From contig NZ_SDVA01000001.1 of NCBI RefSeq assembly GCF_004153545.1, positions 62,001-126,000 on the forward strand: DNA of 64,000 bases, given 5' to 3'. Below the pieces are notes generated by a model. It did no database searches, was not told the origin of the DNA, and was given only the letters and a program-made list of their open reading frames with translations. Below are positions 35,048 to 56,739 of this stretch, in pieces. Positions within the stretch are counted from its first letter, which is position 1. Each line of letters begins with the position of its first letter. A program made the position numbers and the translations under genes. The DNA is from Serinicoccus sediminis. Lineage in GTDB: Bacteria; Actinomycetota; Actinomycetes; Actinomycetales; Dermatophilaceae.

Positions 35048-35788
35048 TCAGGCCGGCGCGGGGGCCAGCAACGTCTCGCGCAGGTCCTCCGGCGCACCGC
35101 TCCCGAGCCGGCGGCAGGCGTCCACGACGGCGCTGATGGTGACCTTGCCCTCGCCCATCAGGATCGCGTCCGCCTCCGGCCCCATGTCCTGCGACTCGAT
35201 GACGTCGAAGAGCACCTGCGGCTCGGGCGCGGACACCGACAGCGGGGTGAACCTGACGTAGGGCGCGAGCACCCGCCCCCAGACCACGGCCCGGTCGGTC
35301 GCTCCCCCGTCCCGGTCGGGACCGTCCTCCAACGGGTAGGCCTCCACGCCGTCCATGTCGGCGAAGGCGGCGTGCAGCACCTGCCGCTGCGTGCCGAAGA
35401 GGACGTAGGTCCAGGGGCCGGCCGGATCGTCTGGATCGTCCATGAACTGCGCACGGCACCGCAGGTCCAGCGCCGGGGAGAGCGGCCGCGCCGAGGGCAG
35501 GGCCATCACCCCGTGCGCCACGTCGATGAACTCGGCCGCCTGGGCGATCAGGCTGTCCCGGTGCCTGGCGCTGAGCGGCAGGTCGGCGCGGGTGACCTGG
35601 CCGTGGGAGAGCCGGCCGTAGACGTCGTCCGGGTCACCGGTGGCCAGCACCTCGTGGCACACGGCCGCCAGCGTCGAGATCACCTCACCCCGCCACAGCG
35701 GCCACCCGAGCAGCTCGAGCCGCCTCGTCACGTGGGGCAGCGAGACGCTGCTGTGCAGCCGGTAGCCGCGGGGTTGGCTGTAGGGCAT
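35048..35788 (-). CDS. Uncharacterised protein, last gene of the exopolysaccharide operon
   Basis: 246 residues, soluble, no signal peptide or membrane helix. The middle has a beta-rich part (PWTYVLFGTQRQVLHAAF) and the C-terminus a predicted helix. I recognise no family. It starts within the stop of the preceding glycosidase-like gene (TGATG, one shared nt), so it is cotranslated with the operon. It may be a regulatory or accessory cytoplasmic protein. Function unknown. Confidence 0.7.
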   Translation of the reverse strand: MPYSQPRGYRLHSSVSLPHVTRRLELLGWPLWRGEVISTLAAVCHEVLATGDPDDVYGRLSHGQVTRADLPLSARHRDSLIAQAAEFIDVAHGVMALPSARPLSPALDLRCRAQFMDDPDDPAGPWTYVLFGTQRQVLHAAFADMDGVEAYPLEDGPDRDGGATDRAVVWGRVLAPYVRFTPLSVSAPEPQVLFDVIESQDMGPEADAILMGEGKVTISAVVDACRRLGSGAPEDLRETLLAPAPA

Positions 35789-37599
35789 CAGTCGTTCGGT
35801 CCTGTCGGTGCGGAGGTGTCCCAGATGCTCGGTCGGCCGGCGAGCGCCTGCTCGGTCAGGAGCACCCAGGTGACGCCGGCCACGGCAGGTGCCGTGGTCA
35901 TGGACACGGCCGGATCGTCTCGCGAGGCCCCGGGCCGGGAACCGTCGGGGCCAGCGGGGCCGAGGCCGTCGAGGGTCGCCCGGGCCCCGGCGGCGTCACC
36001 CGCCCGCTGCTGAGCCAGGGCGACCCCGGCCGTCCCCTCGGTCCACACCAGGGGCTGCTGCACGAGGTGCGGTGCGTAGCCGGTCCGCCCGCCGTGCGCC
36101 CAGGCCAGGTCCGCCGCGCGCGCGAGCGCGGCCGACGCCAGCTCGGACCGCCCGGTGGCCTGCCACCAGATCGCACCCCAGGAGTCGACGTCGAGGGCTC
36201 GGGTGGGGTCCGGGCCCGACGGACTGCGGCCCTGCAGGAAGCCACCGGCCACCGGGTCCCACAGCAGATCGGCGATCGCCGCCTCCAACCGGTCCGCCGC
36301 CTGCCCGGCGGACACCCCGGAGTCGCCGGACAGGGTCGTCGCGGCCAGGTCGAGGGTGTGCCAGGCGTCGAGGTTGTGCTCGGTGGACGCCCACGGCAGA
36401 GCCACCGCGGCGTCGAAGCCGCCCGGCCCGTCCTGACCGTGGCCCGCGGTCACCAGGCCCGCCATCGGTCCCTCGGTGACCTGCTGGTGCATCAGCCACG
36501 CCACCGCCCAGGTCGTGGCCGCCTCGACCTCGGGCCGCAGCGGGTCCTCCTCGTCCAGCTCCCCCCACCAGCGCAGCAGCGCGTAGGTGGCGACGCTGTG
36601 GATGCCCGTGCGCAGCTCGGGGCGGGCGTATCCCGGCGCCAGGGCCGCCGACGACGACACCAGCGCGCCCTGCTGGGCACCCGCTCCGACCTGGAGCGCG
36701 AGCAGCCCCTGGCCCAACCGGCGCGCGGTCGCCTCGTCACCCACCGAGAGGGCCGCGAGCAGCGCCAGCGCCTGGTCGTAGGTGTAGGTCCGCCCCTGCA
36801 TCGGGTGGCCCTGCGGCACCGCGAAAGAGCGCACCAGCCCGGTGTCCGGCGCGGCCTCGGCCAGCACGGCACCGGTGCGGGTGTCGACCAGCCGCAGCAC
36901 CTTCGCTCCCGGGCGGCTGTCGACGAGGGCGAACGTCCCGTCGCTCAGGGCGGGGGCGGTGCCCACGTGGTACGCGGCGTCGGTGACCACCCAGAGCTGC
37001 ACCTCGAGGTGCGCCAGGACGGCGGGGCTGGGCCAGGTCGCGCCGTGCTGGGCATACCCGGCGTTCGCGTCCAGGACCCGCAGCCCCCACTCGCCGGTCC
37101 CGTCGGCCGCGGCGGCGAGGTCGAGGCTGAAGGTCCCGTCCGGGCCCACCAGCGTCTGCAGCTGGGCGGAGACCTCGCCGCCGGGGGTCTGGCGGATCAC
37201 GTCGATGATCCACCGCCCGGGCGTGGGCGGGAGGCTCACCCGGCCGTGGAGCGGGCCGCGGTAGTCCGGCGCCGGAACCTCGTCGATCTCGACCGGGGTC
37301 CGCGGCAGCTGCTCCGGAGTCTCCACCCCGGAGAGCTCGAAGGTGCCCGAGACCGGCCCGGTCCAGGCGTCGGGGTAGGCCTCGTCGGCCTCGAGGCGGG
37401 AGGGGGTGGTGACCTCGGTCCCGGACCCGAGCTGGCCGCGGACCCACTCCCAGGCAACCGGGTCGGGGCCGGTTGCCTCGGTGGTGGACTCGTCCTGCTG
37501 CGCCCGCGCCAGGTCCGCGGTCGGGAGCGTCATGAGGGCGCTGAGCCCGACGACGAGGATCAGGCGTGCCCACGGGAGCGGCGCGCACCAGAACCTCAC
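35788..37599 (-). CDS. Secreted six-hairpin glycosidase-like protein
   Basis: 603 residues with an N-terminal signal peptide or anchor (LPWARLILVVGLSALMTL). Residues 60-290 form beta-rich domains; the C-terminal 330 residues are Trp- and Ala-rich helices typical of (alpha/alpha)6 toroid glycosidases, with WASTEHNLDAWHTLDL as the most distinctive motif. It probably binds, trims or helps export the polymer made by the neighbouring GT2 synthase, like glycosidases in other exopolysaccharide operons. The GTG start overlaps the 46-codon gene stop by GTGA. Catalytic residues are not assigned. Confidence 0.65.
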   Translation of the reverse strand: MRFWCAPLPWARLILVVGLSALMTLPTADLARAQQDESTTEATGPDPVAWEWVRGQLGSGTEVTTPSRLEADEAYPDAWTGPVSGTFELSGVETPEQLPRTPVEIDEVPAPDYRGPLHGRVSLPPTPGRWIIDVIRQTPGGEVSAQLQTLVGPDGTFSLDLAAAADGTGEWGLRVLDANAGYAQHGATWPSPAVLAHLEVQLWVVTDAAYHVGTAPALSDGTFALVDSRPGAKVLRLVDTRTGAVLAEAAPDTGLVRSFAVPQGHPMQGRTYTYDQALALLAALSVGDEATARRLGQGLLALQVGAGAQQGALVSSSAALAPGYARPELRTGIHSVATYALLRWWGELDEEDPLRPEVEAATTWAVAWLMHQQVTEGPMAGLVTAGHGQDGPGGFDAAVALPWASTEHNLDAWHTLDLAATTLSGDSGVSAGQAADRLEAAIADLLWDPVAGGFLQGRSPSGPDPTRALDVDSWGAIWWQATGRSELASAALARAADLAWAHGGRTGYAPHLVQQPLVWTEGTAGVALAQQRAGDAAGARATLDGLGPAGPDGSRPGASRDDPAVSMTTAPAVAGVTWVLLTEQALAGRPSIWDTSAPTGPND

Positions 37600-37736
37600 A
37601 GCCACCACACCTGACGCACGTAGGCCAGGAGCAGGACGAGGCAGAGCGCGAGCAGACCCTTCCACAGCACTCCCCTCTCGAAGCGCACGTCCGTGCGCAG
37701 CAGCTCTGCGGGTGGGCGGCGTGCCAGGTTCCTCAT
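37596..37736 (-). CDS. 46-residue membrane protein after the GT2 synthase
   Basis: Starts MRNLARRPPAELLRTDVRF, then a single helix LLALCLVLLLAYVRQVWWL at the very C-terminus. The start overlaps the synthase stop by ATGA and its own stop overlaps the glycosidase-like start by GTGA, so it is embedded in the operon. Its place after a processive GT2 synthase is that of PgaD/IcaD, small membrane partners of poly-GlcNAc synthases, though it is shorter and not clearly homologous. Confidence 0.75.
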   Translation of the reverse strand: MRNLARRPPAELLRTDVRFERGVLWKGLLALCLVLLLAYVRQVWWL

Positions 37737-39232
37737 GCGACCTTCACCTTTCCCGTCTTCTCGGTCTTGTCCCAGGTCGTCGCCGCCCCGCGGGCCTGCG
37801 CGACGTAGGCGGCGAAGGTGATGGAGCACAGCAGCGGCCCGTAGCCCACGAGCACGAGCAGCGGCGTGACGAGTCGGTGCCCGGGGCTCGCGACGTCGAG
37901 CCGGCGGACGGCCCAGGCCGCGAGCATGCACAACGACGTCCAGAGGTAGACGAAGAGCTCGAACCACCGTCGTGCCCCCGGCCCCGGGTCCAGGCCGAAC
38001 CCGCCGAGCAGCTGCGACGCCGCGAGCTCCACCGGGGCCGGGGCCAGCACCCAGCACAGGATCGCGACGTTGACCAGGCCTGGGAACGTCAGGGCCTGCG
38101 CCCAGCTGCGGCGCGCGATGCGACCGTCCAGCAGCAGCGTGAAGGTCGTGCTGTAGACGAAGGCCAGCGCGCTGATGCCCCAGTACGCCTGGAAGGCCAG
38201 CCAGGCGCTCGCGGAGTCGAGCAGCCACATCGTGGCGAGGGCTGCAGAGGCGAGGATCATGAAGGCGGGCAGGAGCATGGTGCAGTACCACTGCAGCCCG
38301 AACCACACGTTGCCCAGGTGGTGCTCGCGGTGCGGGCGGAAGAACACCTGGTGGAAGCGGCGGGTGACCTGCAGGTTGCCGCGCGACCAGCGCAGCCGCT
38401 GCTTCCACAGCGCGGACACCGAGGCCGGCTCCTCGGCCAGGCACTCGGCGTGGGGGTCGAAGACGACCCGACGCCCGGCCACCTGTGTCTTCAGGGTCGT
38501 CACGGTGTCCTCGGCGAGGGTGGTGACGTCGATGCGCCCGCCCAGGTCCTGCAGGTTCTCCCGGCTCAGCAGCTGGGCCCCTCCGGCGAGACACGCCTGG
38601 GCGCCGACGACGTTCTGGGCCCGGCGGGCGGCGAGCTGGGCGCCCGCATACTCGTACCCGATGTAGCGGTTCAGCCAGCTCGACGGCTCGCTGGCCTCCC
38701 GGATGAAGGCGGTCACGGCACCGACCTGCGGGTCGGCCAGGTGCCGGGTCATCCGGGAGACGGCGTCGGGGCGGAAGATGACGTCGGCGTCCGTGATGAG
38801 CACGGCCTGCGCCCAGTCGTCGGCGAGGAGCACGTCGAGGCCGTGGTTGAGGGTGTGCGCCTTGCCCTGCCCACCCTGCTCACGGCGCAGCGCGACCACC
38901 CGGCCCGGGTGACGCCGGGCGGCGTCGGCGAGGAGCTCGGGGGTGTGGTCGGTGCTGGCGTCGTCGACGACGACGAGCCGCAGCCGGTCCGGGGGGTAGT
39001 CGAGCTCCATCATCCGGTCGACCGAGTGCTCGAGGACGAGCGCCTCGTTCCACGCCGGCACCAGCACGGCCACCCTGGGCTGCTGCCCCGGGTCGACGGT
39101 GTCGTAGTGGGTGCGCCACCGGTGCCCGGTGACCAGGAGGAAACCGACGGTGGAGACGACCATGGGCAGCGCCCCGAGCAGCACCAGCCCGGTGAGCGCG
39201 AGGACGAGCACGTCGATCGGCGACCCGGTCAC
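37733..39232 (-). CDS. Processive family 2 glycosyltransferase (exopolysaccharide synthase)
   Basis: 499 residues. Two N-terminal helices, a GT-A domain and four or five C-terminal helices, as in hyaluronan, cellulose and poly-GlcNAc synthases. Catalytic markers: VPAWNE, VVDDASTD, ITDADV, LAEDT and QRLRW (Q/RxxRW), the last typical of processive enzymes. It would polymerise a sugar nucleotide on the inner face and push the chain through the membrane. The GTG start overlaps the PHP stop by GTGA. Sequence alone does not fix the sugar; GlcNAc or glucose are candidates. Confidence 0.88.
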   Translation of the reverse strand: MTGSPIDVLVLALTGLVLLGALPMVVSTVGFLLVTGHRWRTHYDTVDPGQQPRVAVLVPAWNEALVLEHSVDRMMELDYPPDRLRLVVVDDASTDHTPELLADAARRHPGRVVALRREQGGQGKAHTLNHGLDVLLADDWAQAVLITDADVIFRPDAVSRMTRHLADPQVGAVTAFIREASEPSSWLNRYIGYEYAGAQLAARRAQNVVGAQACLAGGAQLLSRENLQDLGGRIDVTTLAEDTVTTLKTQVAGRRVVFDPHAECLAEEPASVSALWKQRLRWSRGNLQVTRRFHQVFFRPHREHHLGNVWFGLQWYCTMLLPAFMILASAALATMWLLDSASAWLAFQAYWGISALAFVYSTTFTLLLDGRIARRSWAQALTFPGLVNVAILCWVLAPAPVELAASQLLGGFGLDPGPGARRWFELFVYLWTSLCMLAAWAVRRLDVASPGHRLVTPLLVLVGYGPLLCSITFAAYVAQARGAATTWDKTEKTGKVKVA

Positions 39233-39933
39233 GAGAACTCCCGCTCGGCCACCGGCACGTAGTCCCACCGACCCACGTCGACGGCCCGGTGGGCGTCGCT
39301 GCCGGCGCTCACGACGACGCCGCGGCGCGCCAGGTGCGTCAGCGCAGGTATGCCGGGGCAGCGCCACTTCTCGTTGACCTCGACCCACCCACCGGTCGCC
39401 AGGCAGGCGTCGGCCAGCGCGTCCAGGTGCTCCCCCGTGACCTGCTGCTCGTCCAGGCCGCACTTGGGCAGCAGGCTGAACAGGTGGGCCAGGATCGGCG
39501 GGACGGGGCTGGCGGCGAGCGCCCGGGCGGTGGCCGTCACCAGCAGGTCGAGGGCCGACCCAGCGTCCCAGGCGCCCTGCTCGAGCCGGCGGCGCACCTC
39601 CTCCGGGTGGACCGGCCCGTCCGGCCCCGGGAACTGGTGGTCGGCCACCAGCAGGTAGTCCAGCGGGGGCAGCTCGACGGGGAGGTCCAAGCGCCCGGTC
39701 TCGTCGAGGATCTTCACCTCGACACCGCAGCGCACCGCCAGCGGTGCCGACGCCGCCAGCCCCCGGACCTCGCGCACGTAGTCCGGCAACCAGCTGGTGC
39801 TGGCGCGGACGTGGTCGGAGAGCCCGATGGTGTGCAGACCTGCGGCGGCGCCGGCGGCGACCATGTCCGCCAGGGGGTCCTGCCCGTCCGTGGTGGTGGA
39901 GTGCGTGTGCCAGTCGGCCCCCGTGTCGATCAC
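39229..39933 (-). CDS. PHP-domain phosphoesterase-like protein
   Basis: 234 residues. Metal-binding motifs of the PHP superfamily are visible: DWHTHS at the start, LSDHVR, GVEVKIL, a central LAHLFSLLP and the C-terminal GSDAHR. Related proteins include histidinol phosphatase and tyrosine phosphatases CpsB/YwqE that control capsule synthesis. A regulatory or precursor-phosphatase role in polymer synthesis is plausible. GTG start overlapping the ATP-grasp stop by GTGA. Confidence 0.85.
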   Translation of the reverse strand: MIDTGADWHTHSTTTDGQDPLADMVAAGAAAGLHTIGLSDHVRASTSWLPDYVREVRGLAASAPLAVRCGVEVKILDETGRLDLPVELPPLDYLLVADHQFPGPDGPVHPEEVRRRLEQGAWDAGSALDLLVTATARALAASPVPPILAHLFSLLPKCGLDEQQVTGEHLDALADACLATGGWVEVNEKWRCPGIPALTHLARRGVVVSAGSDAHRAVDVGRWDYVPVAEREFS

Positions 39934-40940
39934 GACGACCGGCCCGGGGCGAAGGGGTAGTCGGCCACCGGCACCACCACGTCGGCCCAGTGACGGACCA
40001 CCGCGACCTCGGCGAAGTCGAGGCGCGGCGGCAGGGTCTCGCCCAGGGCGGCGCGGGCGGCCAGTCGTGGCATGTCGATACCGGCCGCCCGGGTCAGCGA
40101 CATGGTGCCGGGGAAGCGTGGATTCACCTCCAGCAGCGCCGGTGTCCCGTCGGCGGCCCGGCGCAGCTGGACGTTGACGACGCCGACGACCCCGATGCGT
40201 TCGGCCACCGCACGGCCCGCCGCGACCAGCTCCGGGTCGGCCACGGTCCGGCCGGCGACGGCGATGCCCGAGTCGACCTTGTCCCGGCGACGAGGGACGG
40301 CGGCGACCGGCGCCCCGCCCTCGGGGCGACCGAGCACGTCGACCGAGAACTCCTCCCCCGGCAGGTGCTCCTGGAGGATGTTGGTGCCGTCGCGGGGGAC
40401 CGCGTCCAGCTCCGAGATGCTGTGCAGCACGGCGAAGCCGCGACCGCCGGCACCCTGGCGTGGCTTGATGATGAACGGCAGCCCGAGGTCCTCGACCTGC
40501 TCGGGGGTGGCCTGCTCGTCCCACAGCACCGTGCGGGGCACCCGGACGACCGCGGCGCAGTGCCGCATGAGCAGGTGCTTGTCCAGGCACAGCCGCAGGG
40601 TCTCCGGCTGCTCGACGAGGACGGTCATGCCGTGCTCGGCGAACCGGCCCCGGGCCTGCGCCACGGCCGCCAGCTCCACGTCCACCGTCGGGATGACGAG
40701 GGTCGCCCCCACCCGGCGGGCCAGGGCGATGAGCTCGTCGACGAAGGCGGGGTCGGCGCCACGGGGCAGCAGACCGCGCCGCTCGCCGGGCACGAGATAG
40801 AGGCCCACCGCCAGCGGGTCGAGGTCGGCCGCCGCGACGGCGTAGTCGTCGGCCAGTGCCTCGATCAGGGTGACGGCAGCCGCTCCGCCTGCCCCGGTCA
40901 CCAGGACGACCGGTCGATCGGCCTCCGCTGCCGGCATCAT
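39930..40940 (-). CDS. ATP-grasp ligase, CarB-like
   Basis: 336 residues. Pre-ATP-grasp Rossmann part with VLVTGAGGAAAVTLIEAL, then an ATP-grasp domain with PFIIKPRQGAGGRGF, the acceptor-side ILQEHLPGEEFSVDVLG and metal-binding LLEVNPRFPGTMSL. Such enzymes form amide or ester bonds between a carboxylate and an amine with ATP. In this operon it may attach an amino acid to a sugar precursor. Substrates cannot be read. It overlaps the deacetylase stop by ATGA. Confidence 0.85.
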   Translation of the reverse strand: MMPAAEADRPVVLVTGAGGAAAVTLIEALADDYAVAAADLDPLAVGLYLVPGERRGLLPRGADPAFVDELIALARRVGATLVIPTVDVELAAVAQARGRFAEHGMTVLVEQPETLRLCLDKHLLMRHCAAVVRVPRTVLWDEQATPEQVEDLGLPFIIKPRQGAGGRGFAVLHSISELDAVPRDGTNILQEHLPGEEFSVDVLGRPEGGAPVAAVPRRRDKVDSGIAVAGRTVADPELVAAGRAVAERIGVVGVVNVQLRRAADGTPALLEVNPRFPGTMSLTRAAGIDMPRLAARAALGETLPPRLDFAEVAVVRHWADVVVPVADYPFAPGRSS

Positions 40941-42100
40941 CCTCGGGCCCCGGTGGGCAGCTGGAAGAGCGACGCGGTCGCGTCCTTCCGGTCCTGCCCC
41001 GGCCCCTCGGTCCGGTCGGGGGTGAAGCTGCGGATGACCTCGAACGGCTCGGCATACCTGGCCCGGGGGGCGAGGCTGCGGGCCCAGTAGCGGGCGGACG
41101 CGACCACTGACTCCGGCTCCAGGTAGGTGCGGTCGCGCTGCGACTCGAACAGCGCCAGGACGTCCACCTTCTGGGCGATCACGGCGTCGACGGGGACGTA
41201 GCGGGTGGGTGAGAAGTCGTTGGACGACGACGGCGACTGGTACGCGTACACCCGGGGGACCTGCCGCACGGCGCTGAGCACGGCGGTGTTCACCGCCCGG
41301 TGGTCCTGGTGGTTGTCGTGCTTGGTGTGGACGTAGACCACGGTCGGGTCGACGGTCTTCACCACCGCCTCGATCAGCCGGATGGTGTCGATGCCCGGGT
41401 CGATGCAGGTGTCCGGGAGGTCGGCGATGAGCAGCCGCGCGCCGATACGAGCCGCAGCAGCCTCGGCCTCACCCAGGCGGTCCTGCTGGTCGCCTCCCAC
41501 GGCCCCGCGGCTCAGGGTGAGGATGACGACGTCGTCGCCCCGGCGACGGTGGTCCAGCAGCGTGCCCGCGCAGCCGATCTCGACGTCGTCCGGGTGGGCA
41601 CCGACGGCCAGCACCCGCTCGGCCGTGTCGCGGACCCGCTCGAGGACGCGTTCGGTGCAGGCGGTCATGGTGACGACGTCGTCGGGGTCCACGACGTCCG
41701 TGACCCCCGCGCGCAGGGCGCGGACGAGCATGGCCGGGTCGAGCTGGTCGGTGGCGGCGAGCAGCACCACGTGCAGCCCCGGCACCACCGAGCGAAGGTC
41801 GCCGACCATCCCCTCTCCCTCCCCGTGGGCCATGACCTCGGCGGACACCACGGCGAGCCGCACCGAGCGGTCGGACGCCGCACGCTCGACCGCTGCCCAC
41901 GGCTCGACCGGCTGGACGGCACACCCCGCACGGCGCAGGCACGTGGAGATCTGCTCGGCGGGGGCCTCACCGATGACGAGCACGGTGTAGGGCGGGGGCG
42001 GGGTGGAGTGCACGACCCCGGGGAGTCCTGACCCTCCCGGGTGCCAGGTGGAGGCACCCATCGACAGCAGGACCGACTGGTCCTCCGTGGGCTTCTCCAC
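40937..42100 (-). CDS. Receiver-like domain fused to PIG-L deacetylase
   Basis: 387 residues from a GTG with AGGAGGG about ten nt upstream. Residues 35-160 resemble a response-regulator receiver of the degenerate type, with no phospho-acceptor Asp at the usual place (LAVVSAEVM). Residues 165-370 are a PIG-L/LmbE zinc deacetylase: GAHPDDVEIGC and KHDNHQDHRAV carry the metal ligands. PIG-L enzymes remove acetyl groups from GlcNAc-containing small molecules in the cytosol. First gene of the seven-gene operon. The fusion is unusual. Confidence 0.85.
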   Translation of the reverse strand: MEKPTEDQSVLLSMGASTWHPGGSGLPGVVHSTPPPPYTVLVIGEAPAEQISTCLRRAGCAVQPVEPWAAVERAASDRSVRLAVVSAEVMAHGEGEGMVGDLRSVVPGLHVVLLAATDQLDPAMLVRALRAGVTDVVDPDDVVTMTACTERVLERVRDTAERVLAVGAHPDDVEIGCAGTLLDHRRRGDDVVILTLSRGAVGGDQQDRLGEAEAAAARIGARLLIADLPDTCIDPGIDTIRLIEAVVKTVDPTVVYVHTKHDNHQDHRAVNTAVLSAVRQVPRVYAYQSPSSSNDFSPTRYVPVDAVIAQKVDVLALFESQRDRTYLEPESVVASARYWARSLAPRARYAEPFEVIRSFTPDRTEGPGQDRKDATASLFQLPTGARG

Positions 42101-42154
42101 CCGCGCGGCTCCCTCCTGGCGATCTGTCCGTGCGCCAGTCCAGCCTAGGGTCCG

Positions 42155-42178
42155 GACGCCGCTCGACCGCACGGTTCC
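42155..42178 (-). promoter_or_regulatory. ECF-type promoter of the exopolysaccharide operon
   Basis: Minus strand GGAAC, 15 nt, CGTC, ending 55 nt upstream of the first gene. It resembles SigM/SigE-class promoters, though the spacer is one or two nt shorter than typical. By eye only. Confidence 0.4.
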
Positions 42179-53524: not shown

Positions 53525-54241
53525 TCACGGCTCGAACCGGTAGCCCGCACCCGGGTGGGTCAGCAGGTGCCTCGGGTGTGAGGGGTCGTCCTCGAGCTTG
53601 CGCCGCAGGTGGGCGGTGTAGACGCGCAGGTAGTGGGTCTCCGTGGAGTAGGCGGGACCCCAGACCTCCCGGAGCAGGGTCTGCCGCCCCACCAGGCGGC
53701 CCCGGTGCCGGACCAGGACATCCAGCAACGCCCACTCGGTGGGGCTCAGCCGGACCTCCTCCCCCCGCTTGGTCACCACCCGCCGCGCGAGGTCGATGCG
53801 GATGTCCCCTGCCTCGACGACCGGTTCGTCGACGTCGCCAGGCGTCGCCCTGCGCACCGCCGCGCGCAGACGAGCCAGCAGCTCGTTCATCGCGAAGGGT
53901 TTGGTCACGTAGTCGTCGGCGCCCGCGTCCAGCGCGTCCACCTTGTCATCCCCGAGATGCCGCGCCGACAGCACGACGATGGGCACCGTGCTCCAGCCCC
54001 GGATGCCCGCGATGACGTCGAGCCCCGACATGTCCGGCAGGCCCAGGTCGAGGACGACCACGTCGGGGTGCTCCCCCGCCGCGGCCTCCAAGGCCGCCCG
54101 ACCGGACGAGGCGGTGCTCACCCGCCACCCCTGGACCCTGAGGTTGATGGCGAGGGCGCGTGCCAGCCCGGCGTCGTCATCGACGACCAGCACCGTGTTG
54201 CCGGTGCCGGCCGGTTCGGGCCGCTCGCTCACGGAGCTCAT
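53525..54241 (-). CDS. kdpE: Response regulator KdpE
   Basis: 238 residues. Receiver with VLVVDDD, phospho-acceptor D in VVLDLGLPDMSG and K in YVTKPF; winged-helix OmpR-type DNA-binding domain at the C-terminus (LSPTEWALLDVLVRHRGRL, LRVYTAHLRRKLEDD). It controls kdpFABC with KdpD. ATG overlaps the kdpD stop by ATGA. Very likely binds the tandem site at 61518. Confidence 0.95.
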   Translation of the reverse strand: MSSVSERPEPAGTGNTVLVVDDDAGLARALAINLRVQGWRVSTASSGRAALEAAAGEHPDVVVLDLGLPDMSGLDVIAGIRGWSTVPIVVLSARHLGDDKVDALDAGADDYVTKPFAMNELLARLRAAVRRATPGDVDEPVVEAGDIRIDLARRVVTKRGEEVRLSPTEWALLDVLVRHRGRLVGRQTLLREVWGPAYSTETHYLRVYTAHLRRKLEDDPSHPRHLLTHPGAGYRFEP

Positions 54242-56739
54242 GCGTCCCCCTGGTGGGGTAGGGAGCGTGGCAGGGTCACCGTCATGGTGAGGCCCCCGCC
54301 CGGGGTGTCCTCGGGCTCGACGCGAGCACCGATGGCGGTGGCCAGACCGTCGACCACGGCCAGCCCCAGCCCCAGCCCGCCCTCGGTGCCGAGACGCTGG
54401 AACGGCTCGAACATGACGGCCCGTCGGTCCTCCGGCACCCCCGGCCCGCGGTCGACCACCCGGACCTCGACCTCCCTCGCGGTGGCCGAGGCGGTGACCA
54501 GCACCGGCTCGTCCGCTGTCCCGTGACGGACGGCGTTGGACACGACGTTGGCCACCACCCGTTCGAGCAGACCGGGGTCCGTGCGGACGAGGGGCAGGTC
54601 CTCGGCCACCTCGAACCGCAGGTCGGCGAGCCACGGCTCGACCGCGACCGGCAGCACCTCCTCCAGCGACACGTCCGTCAGGACGGGCCTGACGGCGCCG
54701 GTCTGCAGCCTCGAGAGGTCGAGCAGGTCCCCGATCAGACGCTCGAGACGGCTCGTCGACTCCGAGATCGTCGCCACCAGGGAGTCCCGGTCCTCCGCGC
54801 GCAGCGCCGGGCCGGCGGCGAGGCCGTCCACCGCCGCCCGGGTCACCGACAGGGGGGTGCGCAGGTCGTGCGACACGGCCGCCAGGAGCGCGGTGCGGGT
54901 CGACTCGGCCCGCTCCAGAGCGCGCGCCGTGGCGTCCCGCTCCTGCAGCTGACGGCGCTCCAGGACGATGGCCGCCTGGGCGGCGAAGGCCTCCAGCGCC
55001 TGCCGGTCACTGGCCGGCAGCGCACGGCCGGTCAGCAGCAACCGGTGGTCGTCGTCGATGGAGACCTCGGTCTCGACGTCGCCCGGACCCGACCGGACCG
55101 AGCTCGCGACCCCCTCCCAGCCCGGCGACCCGGCCGCCCGGGACTGCAGGTGGACCTCGCGCACCGCGAAGGTCTCGCCGATCCGGTCCACGATGGCGGC
55201 CGCCGTGTCCTCCCCCGACAGCACCGAGCGGGCGAGCGCGGAGAGCGACGACGCCTCCGCCCGGGCCTGGTAGGCCTGCCCCGCGCGTCGCGCTGCCAGG
55301 TCGACGACCGAGGCCACCGCCACCGCGACCACGGCGAAGACCACGAGGGCGAGGAGGTCCGCCGGCTGGTCGATGGTCAGCCGTCCGGTCGGCTCGGTGA
55401 AGAACCAGTTGAGGATGCCGAAGGAGAGCACCGCCGCGGCGAGCGCCGGCCACATACCCCCGACGAGGGCGACGGCGACCACCCCGGTCAGGTAGACCAT
55501 GAGGTGGCTGGCGAGGTTCTCCTCGTCCTGGCCCACGAGCAGGAAGAAGGCGGTGACGACGGACGGCAGCACGACGCCGCAGACCCATCCGAGCACACGG
55601 CGGCGCGAGCTGAGCGGTGAGGACCGCGGCCCGAGGGCCCGGCCGGTCCCGGCCTCGTCGTGGGTGACCATGTGCACGTCGATGGCCTCGGAGAGCCGGG
55701 CGATGTCGGAGCTGGCCGACCCCAGGAGCGCCTGGCGCCACAGGCTGTGCCGGGAGACCCCCACCACGATCATCGTGGCGTTCACCCCCCGGGCGAAGTC
55801 CACGACCGCCGTGGCGACGTCCTGGCCCACCACCGTGTGGAAGGTGCCGTCGAGCGAGGCGGTCAGGGCGCGCAGCTCGGCCACGGTGGCCGAGGACGTG
55901 GTGGGCAGGTCGTCCGTGGGCAGCACGTGCACGGCGAGCAGCTCCGATCCCGAGGCCCGTTGGGCGATCCGCGCGGCGCGACGCAGCAGGGTCTCCGACT
56001 CCCGGCCACCGGTGATGGCCACGACGACCCGTTCCCGGGCCGGCCAGGTGCCGGAGATCTCGTGGTCGGCGCGGTAGCGCGTCAGGGCGTCGTCCACCCG
56101 GTCCGCGAGCCAGAGCAGGGCCAGCTCGCGCAGGGCGGTGAGGTTGCCCACCCGGAAGTAGGACGAGAGCGAGGCGTCGATCTGCTCCGCACGGTAGACG
56201 TTGCCGTGGGCCAGTCTGCGCCGCAGCTGCTCCGGGGACAGGTCGACGAGCTGAATCTGGTGGGCCTCCCTCACGACGTGGTCGGGGACGGTCTCCCGCT
56301 GGCGCACGCCGGTGATGGCCTCGACGTCAGCGGTCAGCGACTGCAGGTGCTGCACGTTGACCGTGGTGACCACGTCGATCCCCGCCTCGAGCAGGTCGTG
56401 CACGTCGCCCCACCGCTGCGCGTGCCGGGACCCCGGTGCGTTGGTGTGCGCCAGCTCGTCGACGAGGGCCACCTCGGGCGCGCGGCGCAGCACCGCTTCG
56501 ACGTCGAGCTCGGTCAGGGTGGCGCCCCGGTGCTGCACGGTGCGGCGGGGCACGACCTCGAGGTCGGCGAGCTTGGCCGCCGTCCCTGCCCGGCCGTGGG
56601 TCTCCACCAGCCCGACGACGACGTCCTTGCCCCGGGCGCGGCGGCGGGCCGCCTCGTCGAGCATGGCGTACGTCTTGCCCACCCCGGGCGCGGCCCCGAG
56701 GTAGACGGTCAGACGGCCACGTCGTGGCGGGCGGTGCAT
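54238..56739 (-). CDS. kdpD: Sensor kinase KdpD
   Basis: 833 residues from the ATG. N-terminal KdpD domain with Walker A GAAPGVGKT, a universal-stress-like domain (ALLGSASSDIARLSEAIDV), four membrane helices (DUF4118), a GAF domain and a kinase end with the His box AVSHDLRTPLSVT, N box NVVSNAVRHG and G boxes DRGPGVPED and GLGLGLAVVDGL. It senses low potassium and phosphorylates KdpE. An in-frame TTG 12 codons upstream is possible. Confidence 0.94.
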   Translation of the reverse strand: MHRPPRRGRLTVYLGAAPGVGKTYAMLDEAARRRARGKDVVVGLVETHGRAGTAAKLADLEVVPRRTVQHRGATLTELDVEAVLRRAPEVALVDELAHTNAPGSRHAQRWGDVHDLLEAGIDVVTTVNVQHLQSLTADVEAITGVRQRETVPDHVVREAHQIQLVDLSPEQLRRRLAHGNVYRAEQIDASLSSYFRVGNLTALRELALLWLADRVDDALTRYRADHEISGTWPARERVVVAITGGRESETLLRRAARIAQRASGSELLAVHVLPTDDLPTTSSATVAELRALTASLDGTFHTVVGQDVATAVVDFARGVNATMIVVGVSRHSLWRQALLGSASSDIARLSEAIDVHMVTHDEAGTGRALGPRSSPLSSRRRVLGWVCGVVLPSVVTAFFLLVGQDEENLASHLMVYLTGVVAVALVGGMWPALAAAVLSFGILNWFFTEPTGRLTIDQPADLLALVVFAVVAVAVASVVDLAARRAGQAYQARAEASSLSALARSVLSGEDTAAAIVDRIGETFAVREVHLQSRAAGSPGWEGVASSVRSGPGDVETEVSIDDDHRLLLTGRALPASDRQALEAFAAQAAIVLERRQLQERDATARALERAESTRTALLAAVSHDLRTPLSVTRAAVDGLAAGPALRAEDRDSLVATISESTSRLERLIGDLLDLSRLQTGAVRPVLTDVSLEEVLPVAVEPWLADLRFEVAEDLPLVRTDPGLLERVVANVVSNAVRHGTADEPVLVTASATAREVEVRVVDRGPGVPEDRRAVMFEPFQRLGTEGGLGLGLAVVDGLATAIGARVEPEDTPGGGLTMTVTLPRSLPHQGDA

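What the first reader, a model, noticed from the sequence alone, without database searches (positions are those of the whole stretch)
35048..42178. Seven-gene overlapping operon: a candidate undescribed exopolysaccharide system
One minus-strand operon combines a receiver-like/PIG-L deacetylase, an ATP-grasp ligase, a PHP protein, a processive GT2 synthase (QRLRW), a 46-residue membrane protein, a secreted six-hairpin-like glycosidase and an unknown protein. Every junction overlaps by 1-4 nt, so the proteins are probably made in fixed ratio. GT2 plus a small partner plus a secreted glycosidase suggests a synthase-dependent polymer. The deacetylase, ligase and PHP genes are not part of the textbook Pga, Ica, Bcs or hyaluronan systems and could make or edit an amino-sugar precursor.
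Basis: partly seen in the sequence, partly recalled or inferred. Interest (0 to 1): 0.78.

Follow-up and report, generated by a model that had tools for sequence, protein, structure and literature searches.

The report
Conserved, undescribed surface-polymer gene cassette
Seven tightly overlapping genes form a kinase-free branch of a bacterial gene cassette that probably builds and chemically edits an amino-sugar surface polymer, and that elsewhere carries its own sensor-kinase switch.

Summary
In detail: seven minus-strand genes at 35048-42100, junctions overlapping by 4,4,4,4,4 and 1 nt. The operon is not strain-specific. PIG-L deacetylase / ATP-grasp / PHP / GT2 are contiguous in this order in 30 of 39 loci examined. 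The 46-aa protein is a conserved one-TM family (33 of 39 loci). In most relatives the deacetylase carries an intact receiver domain: 22 of 24 such loci have a histidine kinase gene within 10 kb, against 0 of 8 with a degenerate or absent receiver. The window belongs to one supported clade of six loci without that kinase, with a decayed receiver, intact deacetylase residues, a secreted protein and (5 of 6) a soluble unknown. Best reading: a synthase-dependent, chemically tailored amino-sugar exopolysaccharide. Support: PgaC/IcaA is the nearest NCBIfam model (below cut-off); a signal-peptide TPR protein with a possible barrel follows GT2 in two proteobacterial carriers; three phosphatase folds occur in these loci. 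The chemistry is inferred and no product is known; a mycothiol-like glycoconjugate is the main rival. Nine searches of open papers gave no description.

The parts
40937..42100 (-). Gene 1: degenerate receiver-like domain fused to PIG-L/LmbE-type deacetylase (387 aa)
   Evidence: PF02585 2.2e-22; HPDD and HxxH metal motifs intact, receiver acid pair/Thr/Lys lost
41621..41989 (-). Decayed receiver domain within gene 1 (approximate bounds, residues ~38-160)
   Evidence: Alignment with intact receivers of relatives; 28% identity to L017 here against 74% in the PIG-L domain
39930..40940 (-). Gene 2: ATP-grasp ligase, carbamoyl-phosphate-synthase-like / PRK12767 type (336 aa)
   Evidence: PF15632 3.9e-29; PRK12767.1-4 159 bits, cut-off 390
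39229..39933 (-). Gene 3: PHP-fold protein, inferred phosphatase (234 aa)
   Evidence: PF02811 6.6e-08; in some PHP-less related loci another phosphatase fold is present
37733..39232 (-). Gene 4: membrane GT2 synthase (499 aa), D-x-D and QRLRW motifs
   Evidence: Pfam GT2 7.1e-33; motifs invariant in the 8 GT2s aligned; hydropathy 1 N-terminal + 4 C-terminal segments
37596..37736 (-). Gene 5: 46-aa single-TM partner protein
   Evidence: Found by leave-one-out HMM next to GT2 in 33 of 39 loci, and in the split Leifsonia clusters L124-L126; TM residues 22-40
35788..37599 (-). Gene 6: secreted 603-aa protein; N-terminal modules + EHNxD/WxEG domain
   Evidence: Hydrophobic signal-like stretch 13-31; homologues; no Pfam
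35048..35788 (-). Gene 7: 246-aa soluble protein of unknown family
   Evidence: Present in 5 of the 6 clade loci, each time after gene 6; no Pfam or PDB match

Best explanation
A synthase-dependent exopolysaccharide system that makes a chemically tailored amino-sugar polymer. SHOWN by sequence: a conserved PIG-L/ATP-grasp/PHP/GT2/small-TM unit; in most relatives the deacetylase is fused to an intact receiver and a histidine kinase gene lies nearby; the window's clade lacks that kinase, its receiver is degenerate, and it carries a secreted EHNxD-family protein plus (5 of 6) an unknown protein. INFERRED: GT2 with its one-TM partner polymerises an N-acetylhexosamine at the membrane; the PHP phosphatase and cytosolic PIG-L enzyme dephosphorylate and deacetylate a precursor or the cytosolic chain end; the ATP-grasp enzyme amide-links a carboxylate (for example an amino acid) to or near the freed amine; in relatives the kinase switches the deacetylase by phosphorylation; in the window's lineage the deacetylase runs without that switch and the secreted protein processes the polymer outside.
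For: Core order in 30 of 39 loci. All 8 genomes with the GT2 (E 1e-60) among 394 sampled also have the PIG-L (15 of 394) and the ATP-grasp (16 of 394). In five genomes whose GT2 locus lacks the ATP-grasp (L021,L027,L043,L044,L102) it lies elsewhere in 5 of 5: with receiver-PIG-L and PHP in four (three of these, Leifsonia, also with small, solo-receiver and kinase genes), with PHP and a kinase-like gene in the fifth. PIG-L, ATP-grasp and GT2 lie close together again around distant GT2s (30-34% identical): L175-L177 (opposite strands) and L180/L181. Nearest NCBIfam model is PgaC/IcaA for the window GT2, for two orthologues (L031,L042) and for four distant GT2s (L175,L176,L180,L181). In L042 and L031 a signal-peptide TPR protein with a beta-amphipathic C-terminal part follows GT2+small, as PgaA or BcsC would. 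Phosphatases: PHP, His_Phos_1 (L042 by Pfam, L031 by BLAST to it) or HAD (L180,L181). UDP-GlcNAc 2-epimerase in L180 (Pfam) and L181 (over NCBIfam cut-off) points to N-acetylhexosamine. Kinase within 10 kb: 22 of 24 intact-receiver loci, 0 of 8 others. Clade split 100/100. An EHNxD-family gene also follows GT2 in Myxococcota-labelled L041, E 1.5e-19 with a model that did not contain it.
Against: No polymer, substrate or activity is known. GT2 scores far below every curated equivalog cut-off. Its best PDB match is 6yv7, recalled as non-processive. QxxRW also occurs in non-processive GT21-type enzymes (recalled). The barrel of the TPR protein rests on a weak amphipathicity test (shuffle fractions 0.040 and 0.027; TPR parts as control 0.85 and 0.45), its PgaA/BcsC matches lie in generic TPRs, and a PDB search with the C-terminal part gave only one chance-level hit. 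L041 has neither PHP nor a phosphatase identified, and no small gene found. Two intact-receiver loci lack a kinase (L039, L101; both near a contig end). The 8 degenerate/absent-receiver loci are about 3 lineages. Receiver-PIG-L with kinase also occurs without this GT2 or ATP-grasp at the cut-offs used (G426, G257). L031 and L041 are MAG records, so their taxon labels may be wrong.
Confidence: 0.55

Rival explanations
1. A mycothiol/bacillithiol-like pathway: GT2 makes a single N-acetylhexosaminyl conjugate (lipid or small molecule), a phosphatase removes a phosphate, PIG-L deacetylates, and the ATP-grasp enzyme ligates an amino acid; the product is a glycoconjugate, not a polymer.
For: The enzyme classes match the four steps of mycothiol synthesis (glycosyltransferase, phosphatase, PIG-L deacetylase, ATP-dependent ligase; pathway recalled). 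The PIG-L protein's best NCBIfam model is BshB1 (83.6 bits), and LmbE-like enzymes are described as acting on GlcNAc-containing substrates decorated with carbohydrate, lipid or amino acid (PMC4101496, passages read). Best PDB match of GT2 is 6yv7.
Against: Thiol-pathway profiles are below cut-off (BshB1 83.6 against 182.5; Mca 16.3 against 277). The own genome has 5 further PIG-L matches that could serve such pathways. A dedicated one-TM GT2 partner, an exported TPR protein in two proteobacterial carriers and secreted EHNxD proteins fit a polymer better.
Confidence: 0.25
2. A divergent poly-N-acetylglucosamine (Pga/Ica) operon.
For: Best NCBIfam model for GT2 is PgaC_IcaA, aligned over residues 24-396 (134 bits).
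Against: Cut-off 422 bits not reached; no PgaD/IcaD-type partner or NodB-type polysaccharide deacetylase among the seven proteins; the deacetylase is a PIG-L enzyme without a hydrophobic TM or signal stretch.
Confidence: 0.08
3. The genes share only regulation; the PIG-L enzyme and ligase serve an unrelated pathway and the GT2 is a neighbour.
For: Receiver-PIG-L with kinase occurs without this GT2/ATP-grasp in G426 and G257 at the cut-offs used.
Against: 8 of 8 genome co-occurrence, retention when unlinked, conserved overlaps, proximity to distant GT2s.
Confidence: 0.05

Closest known systems
Pga/Ica poly-beta-1,6-GlcNAc systems
   Same: PgaC/IcaA is the nearest NCBIfam model for the GT2; a small membrane partner beside the synthase; a deacetylase in the operon; in two proteobacterial carriers a TPR protein with a possible barrel part, as in PgaA
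   Different: GT2 far below the PgaC cut-off; deacetylase is PIG-L without signal stretch, not an exported NodB-type enzyme; ATP-grasp and phosphatase genes; partner is one-TM and matches no family
Mycothiol/bacillithiol biosynthesis
   Same: Same series of enzyme classes: glycosyltransferase, phosphatase, PIG-L deacetylase, ATP-dependent ligase (pathway recalled)
   Different: Membrane GT2 rather than a GT4-type enzyme, ATP-grasp rather than MshC/BshC (recalled), profile cut-offs not met
Response regulators with enzymatic outputs (CheB, PleD, RpfG; recalled)
   Same: In relatives an intact receiver is fused to an enzyme and a kinase gene lies nearby
   Different: The output enzyme is a PIG-L deacetylase; no mention found in the papers searched (the LmbE review PMC4101496 holds no 'receiver')
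Exosortase-linked GT2 loci (XrtG/XrtP/XrtS type)
   Same: The L180/L181 variant puts an XrtS-like protein beside PIG-L, GT2 and ATP-grasp
   Different: No exosortase among the window's seven proteins; XrtS match of the variant below cut-off (37 against 145)

Membership tests
PNAG (Pga/Ica) | Synthase reaches the PgaC_IcaA equivalog cut-off | tested here: not met
   134.1 bits against 422.3
PNAG (Pga/Ica) | NodB-type polysaccharide deacetylase and PgaD/IcaD in the operon | tested here: not met
   No such Pfam family among the 7 proteins
Bacterial cellulose (Bcs) | BcsA at CelA cut-off, with BcsB/PilZ | tested here: not met
   CelA 67.6 against 699.1 bits; no such domains
Mycothiol/bacillithiol | Deacetylase at BshB1 or Mca cut-off | tested here: not met
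   BshB1 83.6 against 182.5; Mca 16.3 against 277.15
PIG-L/LmbE-like deacetylases | HxDD + distal His metal/catalytic site | tested here: met
   HPDD and HxxH residues present in the window and in the other 32 full-length copies of 34 aligned (L030 truncated); motif described in PMC4101496
Response regulator with enzymatic output | Receiver acid pair, phospho-Asp, Thr/Ser, Lys | tested here: not met
   Window G/E/E/A/D at these aligned positions; intact in 24 non-redundant relatives
Response regulator with enzymatic output | Kinase within 10 kb | tested here: not met
   None for the window (only kinase-like gene found in it is 54238-56682); 22 of 24 intact-receiver relatives have one
Synthase-dependent EPS (as a mode of action) | Membrane GT2 with D..DxD and QxxRW plus co-encoded membrane partner | tested here: met
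Synthase-dependent EPS (as a mode of action) | Outer-membrane TPR exporter in Gram-negative carriers | tested here: inconclusive
   Signal-peptide TPR protein with beta-amphipathic C-terminal part in L031 and L042; none noted beside GT2 in L041
Synthase-dependent EPS (as a mode of action) | Processive polymer product | not testable with these tools
   Needs biochemistry

The most novel reading that the evidence does not exclude
A previously undescribed, multi-phylum class of exopolysaccharide machine in which a two-component phosphorelay acts directly on sugar chemistry: a kinase phosphorylates a receiver-PIG-L deacetylase, and the freed amine is re-acylated by an ATP-grasp ligase, giving an N-aminoacyl-hexosamine polymer; the window shows an evolutionary escape from kinase control, exchanging the sensor for a secreted polymer-processing protein.
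Probability: 0.25. Interest if true: 0.85.

Novelty: new variant of a known kind. Interest (0 to 1): 0.62.

Why it matters
Surface polymers of environmental actinobacteria are poorly known. Here one compact cassette, found in records of Microbacterium, Leifsonia, Leucobacter, Cellulomonas, Blastococcus, Occultella and Pseudactinotalea and in assemblies labelled Pseudomonadota and Myxococcota, links a synthase to dedicated sugar-editing enzymes. If a kinase controls the deacetylase directly, polymer chemistry and not only gene expression would be under fast signal control. The window's clade supplies a natural experiment: no kinase, decayed receiver, enzyme retained.

Tried and rejected
Profiles of the secreted and last proteins against PDB gave nothing at E 1 and E 10; a wider profile (A4) gave squalene-hopene cyclases at E 0.0075-0.013 and one hit at 0.9. 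Pfam and NCBIfam for the members gave only weak single-member hits, such as GH127 and GH76 at E 0.04, FG-GAP at 0.1, LanKC at 0.003 and a fructose-bisphosphatase at 0.003. The GT2 had no match in the plasmid collection at E 1e-30. The secreted-protein profile found 1 of 396 phylum genomes, the own one; the single protein found 5 of 59 family genomes, the own one and a weak hit at 5e-4 among them. A sigma-70/terminator scan found nothing, which is uninformative at this G+C. Pga/Ica, Bcs and mycothiol membership were rejected on cut-offs. Paper searches gave no description; I saw listings, and passages only of PMC7112194, PMC12419801 and PMC4101496. The library holds only open-licence papers, so this does not prove absence in print. 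sought a paper on 6yv7; nothing was opened.

Limits: gene calls in relatives come from my own codon-model script. 51 of its 80 loci (L046-L096, at most 39% identical) were not treated as members; three were tried as outgroups and two entered the tree. L030 (truncated) was set aside in the receiver count. L107 had no hit and was not analysed.
Full report
OBSERVATION. Seven minus-strand genes, 42100 down to 35048, are open, in order, and overlap by 4,4,4,4,4 and 1 nt. Pfam and NCBIfam name PIG-L, ATP-grasp, PHP and GT2; genes 5-7 match nothing. The start of gene 1 is more likely 42100 than 42178.

CONSERVATION. A GT2 search of 394 class genomes found 8 with a match at E 1e-60, the own one included; the other seven are 50-55% identical. 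A genome-contig scan returned 80 loci, of which 29 form a distinct top group (46-64%, L017-L045) separated from the rest (at most 39%). With the window and loci fetched around genome-search hits I examined 39 loci with the GT2 (L100 dropped as a duplicate of L022, L107 without hits). PIG-L, ATP-grasp, PHP and GT2 are contiguous, on one strand and in the same order in 30 of 39. The nine misses: L021, L027, L043 and L044 (GT2 without the others), L036 (contig starts in the ATP-grasp), L031, L041 and L042 (labelled Burkholderiales, Myxococcales, Rhodospirillales; rearranged), L102 (PIG-L and GT2 only). For L021, L027, L043, L044 and L102 the ATP-grasp was found elsewhere in the genome in 5 of 5: together with receiver-PIG-L and PHP in four, three of them (Leifsonia) with the small gene, a solo receiver and a kinase too, and with PHP and a kinase-like gene in the fifth. 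In the same 394 genomes, PIG-L was found in 15 (E 1e-35) and ATP-grasp in 16 (E 1e-30), and all 8 GT2 genomes have both.

THE SMALL PROTEIN. It is a conserved one-TM family (consensus around RRERRL...VVVVLVR). Leave-one-out models find it next to GT2 in 33 of 39 loci (not L023, L027, L039, L041, L043, L044), with an in-frame start exactly at a 4-nt overlap in 30 of 33. In Leifsonia it is in the split cluster instead (L124-L126).

THE MISSING SWITCH. In most relatives gene 1 is an intact receiver fused to PIG-L (L034: PF00072 2.6e-33, PF02585 1.4e-23). A solo receiver lies within four genes downstream of GT2 in 13 of 39 loci, and a HisKA-HATPase kinase, with PAS folds and five hydrophobic segments in L034, lies in many loci. 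Tabulating receiver residues against a kinase in the up to 10 kb flanks: intact 24 loci, kinase in 22 (not L039, L101, both near a contig end); degenerate or absent 8 loci (window, L017, L018, L097, L098, L099, L042, L106), kinase in 0 (Fisher p 4e-6, but these 8 are about three lineages). PIG-L catalytic residues are intact in all 33 full-length copies. Within the window's clade the receiver diverges much faster than the enzyme (window-L017 28% against 74%; intact L034-L103 52% against 69%). A GT2 tree sets the six loci with the secreted gene apart by one branch (100/100; midpoint root): window, same-genus L097, same-family L098 and L099, Occultella aeris and Pseudactinotalea suaedae. Degenerate L042 groups with L031, which keeps receiver and kinase. 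So absence of the kinase, receiver decay and gene 6 go together, probably from one event in this clade.

THE SECRETED AND LAST GENES. Gene 6 occurs in all six clade loci, gene 7 in five (not L099). Gene 6 shares YDxA, EHNxD, D..(S/T)W and WxEG motifs with exported proteins of other actinobacteria (11 of 296 genomes, the query's own genome among them, by a search with the L022 relative; alignment). No Pfam or NCBIfam model names the family. A family HMM that did not contain it finds the gene after GT2 in L041 (E 1.5e-19), and the L022 relative lies upstream of the cassette in that locus. The repeated linkage to the GT2 suggests work on its product. 'Glycosidase' and 'six-hairpin' remain unproven.

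WHAT IT MAKES. Pointers to a polymer: PgaC/IcaA is the nearest NCBIfam model for the window's GT2, two orthologues (L031,L042) and four distant GT2s; topology and motifs; a signal-peptide TPR protein with a beta-amphipathic C-terminal part after GT2+small in L031 and L042, matching PgaA (1.3e-8 in L042) and BcsC (2.3e-8) only by TPRs and below cut-offs. Pointers to amino-sugar editing: LmbE-like enzymes act on GlcNAc-containing substrates (PMC4101496, passages); a distant variant (L180,L181) links PIG-L without receiver, GT2, an exosortase-like protein, ATP-grasp, UDP-GlcNAc 2-epimerase (L181 250.7 bits over its 210 cut-off) and a HAD phosphatase. Some PHP-less loci hold another phosphatase fold (His_Phos_1 in L042, its BLAST relative in L031; HAD in L180 and L181), so PHP is probably a phosphatase; L041 has none identified. 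The ligase step is inferred from the family only. Against: profile scores are below curated equivalog cut-offs, and the best PDB match 6yv7 may be non-processive (recalled).

NOVELTY. It may work like a synthase-dependent EPS system but fails membership of Pga/Ica, Bcs and the thiol pathways by tested cut-offs. The receiver-PIG-L switch and the cassette were not found in nine paper searches of an open-licence library. I rate it a new variant of a known kind; the product is unknown.

Noticed in passing
window 53525-56682 (-): A receiver and histidine-kinase-like gene pair, about 11-12 kb from the operon; probably a separate two-component system.
   Followed up: no
L180 7404-13464 (oriented) and L181 8409-14501: Compact operon PIG-L / GT2 / exosortase-like (XrtS-like) / ATP-grasp / UDP-GlcNAc 2-epimerase / HAD phosphatase; 4-nt overlaps at 4 of 5 junctions in L180 and 3 of 5 in L181: a sister system with an exosortase-family protein where the small TM gene would be.
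   Followed up: partly
L175, L176, L177: Receiver-PIG-L plus kinase facing a convergent pair of a distant GT2 (31-34% identity) and a distant ATP-grasp in three genomes of one family.
   Followed up: partly
L178, L179: Receiver-PIG-L with kinase and receiver genes but without this GT2 or ATP-grasp at the cut-offs used; the receiver-deacetylase may have other uses.
   Followed up: no
L129-L138: Exported (several Tat-like, twin-Arg) EHNxD/WxEG family proteins without a Pfam or NCBIfam name: a family worth naming.
   Followed up: partly
L027, L043: Leifsonia GT2 lies next to DUF2252, luciferase-like and FMN-reductase genes, while the small TM gene is with PIG-L/ATP-grasp/PHP/kinase elsewhere (L124, L126).
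   Followed up: partly
L102 and L127: One genome keeps receiver-PIG-L and GT2 together and ATP-grasp plus PHP on another contig: another split of the cassette.
   Followed up: partly
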